A stretch of DNA of 64,000 nucleotides from Membranipora membranacea (Eukaryota > Bryozoa > Gymnolaemata > Cheilostomatida > Membraniporidae): positions 18,667,001-18,731,000 of the forward strand of contig OU612067.1 in NCBI GenBank assembly GCA_914767715.1. Reading direction: 5' to 3'. Of this stretch, positions 796 through 60,194 are shown piece by piece; position 1 is the stretch's first letter, and the number at the start of each line of letters is the position of its first letter. The notes below the pieces were generated by a model, which ran no database searches, was not told the DNA's origin, and saw only the letters and a program-made list of their open reading frames with translations. The translations under genes and the position numbers were made by a program.

Positions 796-3291
796 TTATT
801 TCTTGTTTGGTGCAATGATTCCTTCAAGCTGATTCTAAAAGTGATTCAAGAGAAATATATATGAGATAAGTTATCAAACAGAAGGATCAAACAGAAGGAC
901 ATACATTAAGTAACTGCAGTCATCTTAAGGGAACTACAGTCTCCTTTAAGTAACTAAAACCCCCCCCCCTTGTCCCTACATCCCAATTTCTTTATTTGGC
1001 CTATTCAGTAGCAGTAGTTAGAAGATGTATATCATGTTATGTATGAGTATCAGTTGACGACAGTTATATTTGTGTATATATTTATATACAGGTTATCATT
1101 CTGTTTACATACCTTGAGCTGGGCGTTTGTACGTTTGAGGAACTGAAGCTCCTCAGCGTGTTTCTTCTCCTCTACTTGTCTGAGCTCAGCAGCTCGCTTC
1201 TCTATCTGCTCACATTTAGCCTTCAGTTCATTTACTTGTCTCTCTAAATCTCTCTTATCCTGCTCCAACTCTGATATCTACACTCGAGAAAACACAAAAC
1301 TAATCATTGGTATCCCGCGACTCAGGAAAAATAACCGCCTTGTTAGCCAATGTCTTCTAAAGATACCAATTTCTTTTGTATTTCTTGTCAAATTGGTTGA
1401 AAAAACTTAACTGAGGATAGAACTTGATAACAAATCTTCATTCTAAACAAGTCGACTAATGATATTGGTCTATAACACACTTCCATACCTTTCGTTCCAT
1501 ATCAGCTTTGCCTTGTTCAGCTTGGAGGGCTTTCCTCATACCGAACGCTACGCTGCTCTCATAGAGGGTCTGGTATGCAGCTATTGTCATTCTAATCTCA
1601 TCTCTCACTCTCAGTAGGAGTAACCCCCTCTCTGCACAGTTGATTGTTACTTGACGAATCAGCTCATCTGAAATACATAGTAAATTGTTGGGTTTCAATA
1701 TTGCCTCAGTTGTTTTTCTTAAACACCCAAAACTAAGCTTTGAACATCTACGTTAGCCTGAGTTACCAAACCAGGTCGTAGTACAAGGCCTAAAATATCT
1801 CATTCACAAAATTTTACAACTGGTTAGTAGCCTAGAGTTACTTTCTTTACTTAAGAGAAGTGAGAAGTGTAGGAAACAAGCTTACCAAAGCACTGTGAGT
1901 AAAGCTCTCTCCTGACTGGACATATTCCTGTCTCTCTAGCCTGCCTCTGTTGTAGCCTTCTATCTAACTCCTCCTGCTGGTTGACCACATCCAGTCTGGT
2001 GGCAGGTGTACTGGAAACCTGTTGTACCTGTAAGCACACATATTCTGCTCATTAACCTGGGACTCCTAGCACAATCGGTAAATGGATAGGGGTCATATCA
2101 ATACCATCTGATTTTGCAGTAGACAATTGAAATTGGCTATTGTCACACCATGTCAAAGTTCATGCTGAAGTTTGAAATATCAATAACGTTATCTGGCTTC
2201 ACACTTCATCTTTAAACATAAAATACCATGTTCATATATGTTCAAGTCGTTTTGACACATTACCGAAAAGACTTATGCATATGGAAAATTGTTCACATAA
2301 CTTAATGCAACAATCACCAGTGATTTCCACTATGTTGACTAGATTGTTAAAACAGTCTACCAATAACGGAATGACTTATCTGAGATATAACCATAGAGTC
2401 AACTCTATGGATATACCTATTGAAGTTTACGTGACATTATCAGTGAACATAGAAAAAACGATTAGTTTTGTTATCATTTAGAAAGCAATTCCTCCATAGT
2501 AACCTACCCATAGCTGACCATTCTCAGTCCATTCTCGAGGAGGGAGGATAGAGTTCAGAATCTCATCAGTCTGTTGGTTGCTCTTTGCATCAACTGGTGG
2601 TAACTTCTTTCCAGGCGGCGTTGGTACAGGCCCTCCACCTGGCTGTGGTGATGTAGATGTGACTTTGAGCGCTCTTGACTGTACAAAAGAATGGGAATGA
2701 ATAATTTATATGACAAAATGGGTATTAAAGCTACCCTCATAATCAAAGAGCTTAGAATATGTATGTAGGAACAGCAAACATAGTGTCATCGATAGCAGCG
2801 GTAATAAGCCACATGACATGATCAAGTTTCAATATGTAGCAATGAAGGAAACCCAGACGCTATACTATGCAGCCTGTCTAGATAAATGTACCTTAGACTG
2901 TCAGACATGAGAATAATTATGCAATATATATTAACAAGGCCAATTAAATTATAAATATCCTTTGAATTTGATTGACACTATGTAAAACTATATCATTACT
3001 TTGAACACCGTCAGAGGGCCTACAGACAATGAGGAGTGCCTGGTCTTAACAATCAAATGCTATGAATTATGAAATAACCTGATGGTGATACCACCAATGA
3101 ACGAATGAACGAAGTTCATTGATAACACAAATACTTAGATACATGATGATGGAGGGAAAACAGACCAGTCGAGTCAGTCCTATGACTTTTTTGTTGCCAA
3201 CACAACTCACCTTTGGTGTTTTCTTTTCTGTGTTTCTGCTCACAAGGACTGGGTTGTCATATTTGACAAGTGATGAATTTGGTGGTATCAT
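796..3291 (-). CDS. DNALI1: Axonemal dynein light intermediate chain (p28 family)
   Basis: Light intermediate chain of inner-arm axonemal dynein, which acts in the ciliary or flagellar axoneme. Six exons on the minus strand: 3211-3291, 2508-2678, 1886-2027, 1489-1667, 1113-1277 and 796-834. All have GT-AG borders and matching phases, giving 258 residues, the size usual for the family. The protein starts MIPPNSSLVKYD and contains the family signatures RQARETGICPVRRELYSQCF and INCAERGLLLLRVRDEIR. A charged coiled coil of about 70 residues follows, and it ends QLEGIIAPNKK. The last coding exon is only 39 bp and was found from the conserved tail. The start at 3291 is chosen because it matches the family N-terminus; an upstream in-frame ATG at 3360 is not supported. 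The start faces EMC2 across 197 bp. Confidence 0.95.
3095..3121. mobile_element. 27-bp palindromic micro-insertion (CAATGAAC family)
   Basis: It begins CAATGAAC and ends GTTCATTG. The flanking 7-mers are ATACCAC (3088-3094) and ATAACAC (3122-3128), a target duplication with one mismatch. It lies in DNALI1 intron 1. See the family finding. Confidence 0.6.
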
Positions 3292-3488
3292 TATGGAGAT
3301 AGTATGTGATACTATAAAATAAATTTGTTGGAAGAAGGATCTGACAGTTAGTGCATACAAGCTTTTCTCTCTGTGAATTACTTGTCGCTAGGATACAGAC
3401 ATATCCATATCCTGTTTCTGACAAAAAAGGACTCTCATACTTTCGGCAACTTGCAACAGGAAATCGGAATTACTATTATACTAGCAAG
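3292..3488. promoter_or_regulatory. Bidirectional promoter interval between DNALI1 and EMC2
   Basis: The two start codons diverge across 197 bp, so both transcription start regions and 5' UTRs must fit here unless non-coding exons lie elsewhere. No clear TATA box or named factor site was identified. The promoter role is inferred from gene geometry only. Confidence 0.5.
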
Positions 3489-58300: not shown

Positions 58301-60194
58301 TGAAAATAATGTGAAAGAGTTTGCAGTTTGTAGGAAGCCGGTGTATGAGCCTGCGAATGGTGGAGGCCTTCCATTCCATGACAACTGAGGCATTGGGTCA
58401 CTAATCGTACCATGAAGAACAAAAAGAACAAAAATTAATTGCGATAATTAAAATATGCCTATGAATTAAGGCAAATTTTCTGCACCTGTTTGTCCACATT
58501 CCGTAGAAGAGCTCCACGAACGCCATTGTGAGATTGATCAGGAGGAAGAAGAAGAGATTCCTTGAGTTCGCGTCCGATAAGATGAGCCTATTGTAAAAAA
58601 TAAGATTGACTTAACTATTTCCGGGCTCAAGGAGTATCACAGGCTACTGAAACCAAAGAGTAATTCTCGTGGCTGAAAGTGAAACCCTCTGCAGTTGTTG
58701 CTATGATTAAAAAAAGTCATGGATGAAGTTGGTACTGTTTGAGGACATTCTTTGTAGGTACAAAATTGATCGACCAGCAGTCGCATTGTTGTGAGTTAGA
58801 ACAATGAACTCCCTCTCCCTGAGGTAGAACAATAGTGCGATATTGACCAATCAGCAACCTTTCGACATTTGTGAAAATAAAAATGGCCCCTAGTGATAAT
58901 GTATCTTTGAAAGAAAATAACTAATATTCTCTTGTTCAAAATCAGTAGGCCTATGCTCATAACTTTCAGTTGTAGGCTATCGTGAGGAAAGATCTTACCC
59001 CAACATCCTATAGTTTAATTATCTGCCACGGACACTAATCAACCTGTCCTATGGACCATGTGGATATTAATGCACGCGCGTATTTCGTTGCAGATTCTTT
59101 TTCATGATCAAGAACATATATCTAGGATGATCAGCCAGGTCCCAAACCTCGCTCATTTGATCATGTGCAAGTTGTATGTCTGATCCTATGTTACTTTGCC
59201 AATACAATGCCCTAGTGAGGGGGTAGCAAGGTGTCTTTAGAGCAGAAATATGTCTTCAGAGTAATGAGATACTTCGACAATGAATATCTCCCGTCATATC
59301 CAGACATTGGGTTTCTTATCAGTTGAAAACACATTAAATTGACAGAAGTGTGCCCAATATAGCTGACTACCCCTAGCTTCTGAATGGTACACTACCATAA
59401 GAATACGCATATTTGATGGTGAGCCAATGAGAGGCCAGTATTTATGTTTTCACCTAGTCTAAGTGTTCAGACGACTGCAATGCAAGTTAGTGGAATAGCG
59501 TTATCAAACCAATGAACTAAACCTTAGTTCATTGATCAAACACTAAATGGGTGTTAAATAATGTTTTGCCACTAACTCGCATTGCAGTCTGACCATTTAG
59601 ACTTACTCTCACCAAGAGAATATAGCAATGCCCAATTCTCATTGGCTACTGGATATTTTCTATAGTAGATCTTTAGAGTAATCTGATGTAAAGGCTGCCA
59701 TATCTAAATTCGTCTTTTGTCTAGGACATCACACCCAGAATTGATGTGTATAGTCCTTCCTGAGGGAGAGAGCTTTCACTGGTTATAAGTAGCCTAAACA
59801 AATTTGTTTATAATGAATGCTTATGATGATTATGATGTACTGCTGTTTGTTTGTATACTATATGGAGTCTCCATGAAAGGCAAATAAGCGGAAGTTTTGC
59901 CAAGGCCCAAAGTAAGTAAATAAAACACACATCTTCAGTTCACTAAAAGGAAGGGAGCAACACTACAACTTCTTACTAACTTAACTACTTTGTGGTTTCC
60001 TTGAACAAACAACATGACACAATTAACATAAAAAAATTGATGGATTGGTCAGAGAGTTAACTTTAAACTTAAGTTAGTATTAGTTTAGTATGTATGAATT
60101 ATGATTGGGCTTACCTGATCCATCCTGATATCTTCTGGATAAACTTTGGTTTAGGTTTGTAGACCTGGTCTCCAGAGTGGACTGGAAGCATCAT
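52352..60194 (-). CDS. SLC30A7: Zinc transporter 7 (cation diffusion facilitator)
   Basis: Moves zinc from cytosol into the early secretory pathway (Golgi). Eleven exons on the minus strand: 60115-60194, 58486-58587, 57968-58081, 56862-56949, 56085-56217, 55159-55200, 54685-54825, 54072-54207, 53495-53585, 52980-53129 and 52352-52399. The phases close to 374 residues, against 376 in human. The zinc sites are in TM2 (SDSFHMFFD) and TM5 (HILADTLG). The His-rich cytosolic loop (HGHSHG-type repeats) is spread over three exons, one of only 42 bp. The C-terminal domain has [17 protein letters not shown] and SQTHNIFTQ and ends [13 protein letters not shown]. Two adjacent ATGs are available at the start (60194 and 60191). 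Confidence 0.96.
52531..52580. repeat. 50-bp palindrome, TAGCCTGTCTTG family
   Basis: The ends TAGCCTGTCTT/AAGACAGGCTA are the same arms as the 29-bp palindrome at 61075, with a longer interior centred on TTCGAA. No convincing target duplication is seen. It is in the last intron of SLC30A7. Confidence 0.6.
55372..55405. mobile_element. 34-bp palindromic micro-insertion, third sequence family, 7-bp target duplication
   Basis: The arms CACAGAGTAAGGATA and complement enclose four bases. Perfect direct repeats AGCAAAT flank it at 55365-55371 and 55406-55412. It is in an intron of SLC30A7. Confidence 0.8.
55616..55712. repeat. CACATATTC tandem repeat
   Basis: About ten units of 9 bp with a TATATTCAT variant at the left end, in an intron of SLC30A7. 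Confidence 0.85.
59420..59650. mobile_element. Inverted-repeat MITE, approx. 230 bp, with nested micro-insertion
   Basis: The arms share GCCAATGAGA at the outside and CTGCAATGC-AGTTAGTGG inside, with moderate divergence. A 25-bp palindromic element is nested at 59510-59534. The outer ends are approximate. It lies in SLC30A7 intron 1. Confidence 0.6.
59510..59534. mobile_element. 25-bp palindromic micro-insertion with 7-bp target duplication
   Basis: The arms are CAATGAACTAA/TTAGTTCATTG. Perfect direct repeats ATCAAAC flank it at 59503-59509 and 59535-59541. Confidence 0.8.

What the first reader, a model, noticed from the sequence alone, without database searches (positions are those of the whole stretch)
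3088..59541. Family of ultra-short palindromic insertions (21-27 bp) with 7-bp target duplications
Five loci (3095, 21862, 39208, 39831, 59510) carry a palindrome that begins CAATGAAC and ends GTTCATTG. Four are flanked by perfect 7-bp direct repeats (CACAGAG, ATAACAC, GTCAGTG, ATCAAAC) and the fifth by one with a single mismatch. The flanking repeats differ between loci while the palindrome is conserved, which is the signature of insertion with target duplication. At 21-27 bp these are far smaller than ordinary MITEs, with essentially no room for an interior. They could be minimal hairpin substrates mobilised by a transposase, end-to-end products of larger elements, or another hairpin-capture process. 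The mechanism is inference.
Basis: seen in the sequence. Interest (0 to 1): 0.9.

Follow-up and report, generated by a model that had tools for sequence, protein, structure and literature searches.

The report
Excision scars of P-type jumping genes
The tiny palindromes are most likely not mobile elements themselves but scars left where P-element-like transposons jumped out: the two cut-off ends of the transposon were stitched together between the two copies of its 7-base landing site.

Summary
In detail: all five palindromes are present, four with perfect 7-bp flanking repeats and one with a single mismatch. Genome-wide the pattern occurs 1699 times, against 12 for the reversed pattern. In the 32 sites I could read with flanks, perfect abutting repeats occur only at exactly 7 bp (22 of 32).

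They are best read as excision footprints of P-superfamily transposons. Full-length parents with the same ends exist: an 826-bp non-autonomous family with a 7-bp duplication, and a 9,619-bp copy with a perfect 30-bp terminal repeat, a GTTTGAC duplication and P-transposase domains inside.

The scars keep only the outermost part of the terminal repeat. In the first 100 listed family A ends, 92 stop at nt 15-18, none at 19-28, and 8 are full-length. A second family stops at 16-19, mostly 17. Drosophila P transposase cuts 17 nt inside its ends and leaves the same kind of scar. A third family has a blurrier limit.

The mechanism is known; the number of scars and the 17-nt limit in 7-bp-duplication families are the interest. 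Host unnamed.

The parts
3088..3128 (.). Excision footprint: TSD ATACCAC / ATAACAC (1 mismatch) around CAATGAAC + filler GAATGAACGAA + GTTCATTG (3095-3121); 8 nt of terminal repeat kept on each side, too few to tell family A from B; the filler repeats adjacent TIR sequence
21855..21889 (.). Excision footprint: TSD CACAGAG around CAATGAACT-TCA-AGTTCATTG (21862-21882); 9 + 3 filler + 9; family A or B cannot be told
39201..39240 (.). Excision footprint, family A: TSD ATAACAC around CAATGAACTAAAGGTTTAGTTCATTG (39208-39233); 12 nt left + 15 nt right sharing 1 nt
   Evidence: (same core at other sites)
39824..39862 (.). Excision footprint, family A: TSD GTCAGTG around CAATGAACTAAACCTC|AGTTCATTG (39831-39855); 16 nt left + 9 nt right, blunt
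   Evidence: parent TIR
59503..59541 (.). Excision footprint, family A: TSD ATCAAAC around CAATGAACTAAACCTTAGTTCATTG (59510-59534); 15 nt left + 11 nt right sharing 1 nt
60876..60911 (.).
   Evidence: family assignment by eye
55365..55412 (.). Footprint of family C: TSD AGCAAAT around CACAGAGTAAGGATAAGGATATCCTTACTCTGTG (55372-55405, 34 bp); same ends as the 5,915-bp P element in L037 846-6760
   Evidence: footprint; parent
40405..40457 (.). Probable footprint of family D: 8-bp TSD ATTCCCAC / ATTCTCAC (1 mismatch) around CATAGACTTAATAT...TTAAGTCTATG (40413-40449); same ends, with a substitution on the right, as the 6,419-bp element in L039 191-6609
58795..58829 (.). Probable one-sided footprint of family B: GTTAGAA + CAATGAACTCCCTCTCC (17 nt) + CTGA + GGTAGAA (1 mismatch); right end lost
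   Evidence: sequence printed; family B TIR; boundaries by inference
50470..50515 (.). Possible footprint of a further CA...TG family: 8-bp repeat GGTAGAAG around CACTGAAGTATAAAATATTCCATATCAGTG (50478-50507); no parent sought

Best explanation
The palindromes are excision footprints of P-superfamily cut-and-paste transposons. A full-length element with ends CAATGAACTAAACCTCCAGGAAGAACAACT (family A) or CAATGAACTCCCTCTTCCTCAGG... (family B) inserted and duplicated 7 bp of target (7-bp duplications shown for scars and for family A parents). The transposase later cut it out, one strand at the element boundary and the other about 17 nt inside, so each donor end kept about 17 nt of terminal repeat as a 3' single-stranded tail (inferred from the retention limit and from the Drosophila enzyme). 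The two tails, which have the same sequence, were trimmed and joined by end joining with microhomology or short filler. This leaves TSD + start of the repeat + its inverted copy + TSD: a palindrome (anatomy shown; repair pathway inferred).
For: (1) Same-ended parents. Family A: an 826-bp element in L059 with TSD GTCAAAC on both sides. A search with it gave 95 candidates; 40 were scored and all 40 match at 97-100%, 38 over 1-826 and 2 over 3-826. A 9,619-bp element at C8:16707673-16717291 has a perfect 30-bp TIR, TSD GTTTGAC on both sides and shared subterminal DNA; inside it PF21787 and PF21788 are over cut-off and PF12017 is at 22.9 bits (cut-off 23). (2) An independent family: L037 holds a 5,915-bp P element (41-bp perfect TIR, TSD TAATTAT) with four P-transposase Pfam domains over cut-off in two of the four frames scanned; its ends match the window palindrome at 55372. 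(3) Retention limit. Family A, first 100 of 942 places that have at least 15 nt: 64 stop at nt 15, 15 at 16, 9 at 17, 4 at 18, none at 19-28, 8 are full-length ends. Family C, 99 of the first 100 of 2056 places with at least 16 nt: 13 stop at 16, 72 at 17, 3 at 18, 1 at 19, 10 full-length. (4) Junctions fit 17-nt tails: the commonest family C product (31 of 89 non-full rows) equals annealing of the last four nt, TATA, of two 17-nt tails; 27 of 100 family B rows are 17 nt joined to the other end at TTC. (5) Flank repeat of exactly 7 bp. (6) In a 13-bp tandem array, taking out the palindrome plus one 7-mer restores the register at both sites, apart from one substitution. (7) Drosophila P excision products have the same anatomy (PMC2895639) and come from a 17-nt staggered cut (PMC7776569). 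(8) Galileo, also P superfamily, has mostly 7-bp TSDs with consensus GTANTAC (PMC4168063); here, in 27 selected perfect TSDs read on both strands, T at position 2 and A at position 6 are 81%.
Against: Family B retention is less sharp: of 84 non-full rows (first 100 of 692 places, at least 17 nt required), 47 stop at 17, 19 at 18, 9 at 19, 5 at 20, and 4 reach 22-25. Family B parents were seen only as facing pairs of extended ends in that list; none was fetched and their TSDs are unchecked. Most listed family A scars stop at 15, not 17, which needs end trimming. 5 of 32 sites have 2-4 mismatches in the 7-mer; decay, nesting or flank loss is assumed, not shown. Family C TSDs were checked only in the window site and L037. 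No THAP domain was found in the frames scanned, though introns were not modelled and only 3.5 kb of the middle of the 9.6-kb element was read. 4 of 8 transposase loci fetched showed no ends by the criterion used. No second haplotype or related species was available. The genome-wide count of longer palindromes (interior 21-50 nt) did not complete.
Confidence: 0.95

Rival explanations
1. Ultra-short mobile palindromes: the 20-36 bp hairpins are themselves cut, moved and inserted by a P-type transposase (micro-MITEs).
For: Some cores recur: the 26-bp core CAATGAACTAAACCTTTAGTTCATTG, both orientations, is 9 of the 50 listed loci, and a 30-bp core is 31 of 89 non-full family C rows. The scars carry duplications of the parent's length.
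Against: The recurrent cores are the products expected from microhomology between the tails (TATA in C, TTC in B, single T within TTT in A) and sit beside 1-nt variants. Other junctions are diverse, with asymmetric ends and filler. Drosophila P needs internal sequences much longer than these to transpose (recalled, no call).
Confidence: 0.03
2. Internal-deletion derivatives: the palindromes are elements whose interior was lost during gap repair (SDSA followed by end joining).
For: P excision gaps in Drosophila are often repaired that way. Facing pairs of full ends at other spacings exist here, e.g. 641, 1151 and 1249 bp.
Against: Deletion endpoints would be spread over the element. Here 0 of 100 family A rows end between nt 19 and 28, and 0 of 99 family C rows end between nt 20 and the full-length class.
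Confidence: 0.02
3. Chance or functional dyads (for example a transcription-factor site) unrelated to transposition.
For: None beyond the palindromic form.
Against: 1699 against 12 in the reversed control; exact 7-bp flank repeats that differ between sites; ends identical to a transposon's.
Confidence: 0.002

Closest known systems
Excision footprints of the Drosophila melanogaster P element (P{wa} repair products, PMC2895639, passages seen)
   Same: TSD + up to 17 nt of terminal repeat + microhomology or templated filler + inverted terminal repeat + TSD; CA...TG ends
   Different: There 8-bp TSD, induced in the laboratory at one site; here 7-bp duplications (families A and B scars, A and C parents), natural, with 1699 palindromes of the CAATGAAC type in one genome
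Galileo (P superfamily, Drosophila; PMC4168063, passages seen)
   Same: P-superfamily transposase; mostly 7-bp TSD with target consensus GTANTAC, like nTnnnAn here
   Different: Galileo has long, variable terminal repeats; here perfect runs of 30 and 41 bp in the two 7-bp-TSD elements with transposase. The word 'footprint' does not occur in that paper's main text
zebrafish Pdre2 / THAP9 (PMC10983969, passages seen)
   Same: P-type element outside flies, CA...TG ends, excision by a P-type transposase
   Different: 13-bp TIR, 8-bp TSD, at least 50 homologous sequences reported; excision studied on reporter plasmids, with larger flanking deletions described for the zebrafish enzyme acting on Drosophila P

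Membership tests
P superfamily of DNA transposons (for the parent elements) | Transposase with P-type RNase H fold split by a GTP-binding insertion, plus P HTH domain | tested here: met
   (L037): PF12017, PF21787, PF21788, PF21789 over cut-off. (9.6-kb family A element): PF21787 and PF21788 over cut-off, PF12017 at 22.9 bits (cut-off 23). The 826-bp element has no long ORF.
P superfamily of DNA transposons (for the parent elements) | N-terminal THAP DNA-binding domain | tested here: inconclusive
   Not among the Pfam hits; introns not modelled and only part of each element scanned.
P superfamily of DNA transposons (for the parent elements) | 7- or 8-bp target-site duplication | tested here: met
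   7 bp: L059 GTCAAAC, C8 element GTTTGAC, L037 TAATTAT. 8 bp: L039, L040, L042.
P superfamily of DNA transposons (for the parent elements) | Terminal inverted repeats starting CA and ending TG, about 31 bp | tested here: met
   Perfect runs of 30 bp (C8 element), 41 bp (L037), 25 bp (L040), 35 bp (L042).
P-type excision footprint (for the window palindromes) | Retains no more than about 17 nt of each terminal repeat between two TSD copies | tested here: met
   Families A and C: limit at 17-19 in the first 100 and 99 rows. Family B blurred: 17-20 with 4 of 84 beyond 20. Capped lists, not the whole genome.
P-type excision footprint (for the window palindromes) | Microhomology or templated filler at the junction | tested here: met
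   window 3095 and 55372 carry filler that repeats adjacent TIR.
P-type excision footprint (for the window palindromes) | Site formerly occupied by the full element (seen in another haplotype or relative) | not testable with these tools
   One assembly only; no relatives held.
   Inner sequence and length (20-36 bp; the pattern allowed 19-36) vary among the 50 listed loci, although one core recurs 9 times.

The most novel reading that the evidence does not exclude
A subset of the perfect palindromes (the recurrent 26-bp A core and 30-bp C core) is itself recognised at its CA...TG ends and re-mobilised by a P-type transposase, which would make them the smallest transposable units I know of; recurrent end-joining products explain the same counts more simply.
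Probability: 0.03. Interest if true: 0.85.

Novelty: new member of a known kind. Interest (0 to 1): 0.42.

Why it matters
The genome keeps 1699 palindromes of this type. Against 942 places with the first 15 nt of family A's terminal repeat, 110 places carry the 29-nt full end, so scars outnumber surviving ends several-fold. That makes a natural archive of germline end-joining at one defined break type. It also indicates that the unusual cut about 17 nt inside the ends, known biochemically from Drosophila P, is shared by P-superfamily families with 7-bp duplications. Such scars are easily mistaken for micro-MITEs or regulatory palindromes, and could be used to trace past transposon activity after the elements have gone.

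Tried and rejected
Ultra-short mobile unit, internal-deletion derivative and chance dyad were weighed and set aside (see rivals). Searching the 30 loci of about 3.3 kb around transposase hits for CAATGAAC ends gave three matches that do not continue as the terminal repeat; the ends lie further out. Of 8 transposase loci fetched at 8 kb, 4 gave clear element ends (L037, L039, L040, L042) and 4 gave none by the criterion used (L035, L036, L038, L041) (one search listed the longest inverted repeats and did not change this). L039 also showed a second, inner candidate pair with one TSD mismatch. My first empty-site script printed a stretch that did not reach the palindromes; one search replaced it. 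Both L003 sites hold the same scar and may be one event copied with the array. The TSD list holds 27 perfect duplications picked, the window and L059; sites with mismatches were left out. In one search the right end was chosen to minimise TSD mismatches; one search is the unbiased version (shortest strict match).

Not obtained: the count of CAATGAAC-N21-50-GTTCATTG, the family D pattern and the TAGCCTGTCT palindrome pattern (not completed). Papers: PMC4168063, PMC7776569, PMC10983969 and PMC2895639 were seen as passages only; others as search listings. Searches aimed at a genome-wide survey of P footprints listed none by title or abstract start; this does not show that none exists.
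Full report
What was checked. The pattern CAATGAAC-N3-20-GTTCATTG occurs there 1699 times, against 12 for the pattern read backwards. In the 32 sites I could read with flanks (27 in fetched loci, 5 in the window), a perfect direct repeat abuts the palindrome in 22, always of exactly 7 bp; 5 more have one mismatch and 5 have two to four. 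Pairing flanks between different sites gives 0.4% perfect in 992 comparisons. The duplications vary, but T at position 2 and A at position 6 stand out (81% when 27 selected perfect duplications are read on both strands).

The inner sequence is the clue. Reading inwards from each end, the cores follow one of two terminal sequences, CAATGAACTAAACCT... (A) or CAATGAACTCCCTCTYC... (B), for a variable distance on each side. They then meet bluntly, with a shared base, or with filler (50 loci; the pattern allowed lengths of 19-36 bp). That is the look of two broken ends joined, not of a fixed unit copied many times, although one 26-bp core recurs in 9 of the 50.

Parents. Listing the first 100 of 942 places with the first 15 nt of A showed 8 that continue as CAATGAACTAAACCTCYAGGAAGAACAAC, in four facing pairs 826-828 bp apart. 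One of them, in L059, is an 826-bp element with TSD GTCAAAC on both sides and no long ORF. A search with it gave 95 candidates, of which 40 were scored; all 40 match at 97-100%, 38 over 1-826 and 2 over 3-826. The 29-nt end occurs 110 times, so about one in eight or nine of the 942 fifteen-nt ends is still a full-length end; full-length ends with a mutation in those 29 nt are not counted. One pair of ends, C8:16707673 and 16717291, encloses a P-transposase hit. It has TSD GTTTGAC on both sides, a perfect 30-bp TIR and the same subterminal DNA as the 826-bp element. Its middle encodes PF21787 and PF21788 domains over cut-off, with PF12017 just under. The genome has 134 matches to the P-type RNase H domain (150 of 211 candidates scored; pieces of one gene can count separately; 0 of 14 control genomes). 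Family B parents are seen only as facing pairs of longer ends in the list, for example 886 and 892 bp apart; I fetched none.

Independent support from other families in the same window. The palindrome at 55372-55405 (TSD AGCAAAT) has the ends of the 5,915-bp element in L037, which has a 41-bp perfect TIR, TSD TAATTAT and four P-transposase Pfam domains. The palindrome at 40413-40449 has the ends of a 6,419-bp element in L039, and both have 8-bp duplications, the window one with a mismatch. So the window probably carries scars of at least three P-type families.

Where the retained sequence stops. Drosophila P transposase cuts one strand at the element boundary and the other 17 nt inside. A scar should therefore keep at most about 17 nt per side, however long the terminal repeat is. 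Family A: of the first 100 rows with at least 15 nt, 92 stop at 15-18, none at 19-28, 8 are full ends. Family C: of 99 rows with at least 16 nt, 89 stop at 16-19, 72 of them at 17, and 10 are full ends. Symmetric scars are listed on both strands and count twice, and scars that keep fewer nt are not in these lists. Family B is looser: of 84 non-full rows with at least 17 nt, 47 stop at 17, 33 at 18-20 and 4 at 22-25. Some of the 18-20 class may be chance matches of filler, or the cut may sit slightly further in; this is open.

Junction chemistry. The first 17 nt of family C end in TATA, which pairs with itself. Joining two such tails there gives exactly CACAGAGTAAGGATATATCCTTACTCTGTG, the commonest product (31 of 89 non-full rows). 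The first 17 nt of B end in TTC, which matches the TTC of the other end (GTTCATTG); the product CAATGAACTCCCTCTTCATTG makes up 27 of 100 rows. In A the common products join ...CCT to one of the Ts of TTTAG (rows). Window site 3095 has filler GAATGAACGAA that repeats its own terminal repeat, as in templated insertions after P excision in flies. The repair pathway is inferred; polymerase-theta end joining is the likely one.

Empty site. In L003 two scars sit in a 13-bp tandem array. Removing the palindrome and one copy of GATGGAT puts the array back in register at both places, apart from one substitution (match at 13-bp offset 0.81 joined, 0.77 with both 7-mers kept, 0.70 with the insert, over a stretch that includes some non-repeat DNA).

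Verdict. The 'family of ultra-short insertions' is best read as excision scars. The kind of thing is known from Drosophila P, and Galileo supplies a precedent for the 7-bp duplication. What adds to that is the number of natural scars and the retention limit near 17 nt in families with 7-bp duplications. Limits: one assembly, no relatives, no THAP domain found in the frames scanned, family B limit blurred, retention counted on capped lists, several genome-wide counts not answered.

Noticed in passing
window 61075-61103 and 52530-52579: Another short palindrome, TAGCCTGTCTTG...AGACAGGCTA, with a perfect 9-bp direct repeat GGCATGATG at 61075; a related longer hairpin at 52530. Not CA...TG, so perhaps scars of a different transposon superfamily.
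   Followed up: partly
window 6612-10053 and 23709-26900: Large tandem arrays: about 61 copies in register at a 63-bp step, and an array with a 13-bp step encoding repeats such as [13 protein letters not shown] in several frames.
   Followed up: no
window 36069-37834: Perfect 862-bp inverted repeat with a 42-bp spacer, beside ATTGATTTATTGAGTG-type repeats.
   Followed up: no
L047/L046, C1:1557649-1557714: A scar whose 7-bp duplication GCCCAAT overlaps the start of a neighbouring CAATGAACTAAACCTCC end: one element appears to have inserted at the end of another.
   Followed up: partly
L056 1501-1580: Run of CAATGAACTAAAGGTTTAC units ending in a palindrome: repeated filler synthesis or nested events at one break.
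   Followed up: no
L074 43-68: The 9.6-kb element itself carries a scar-like palindrome near its right end, CAATGAACTGATTCATTAGTTCATTG, with one TSD mismatch.
   Followed up: no
G000:C1 around 1.83 Mb and 2.22 Mb: Two scars of identical sequence recur in the same order about 0.39 Mb apart: a segmental duplication or an assembly duplicate.
   Followed up: no
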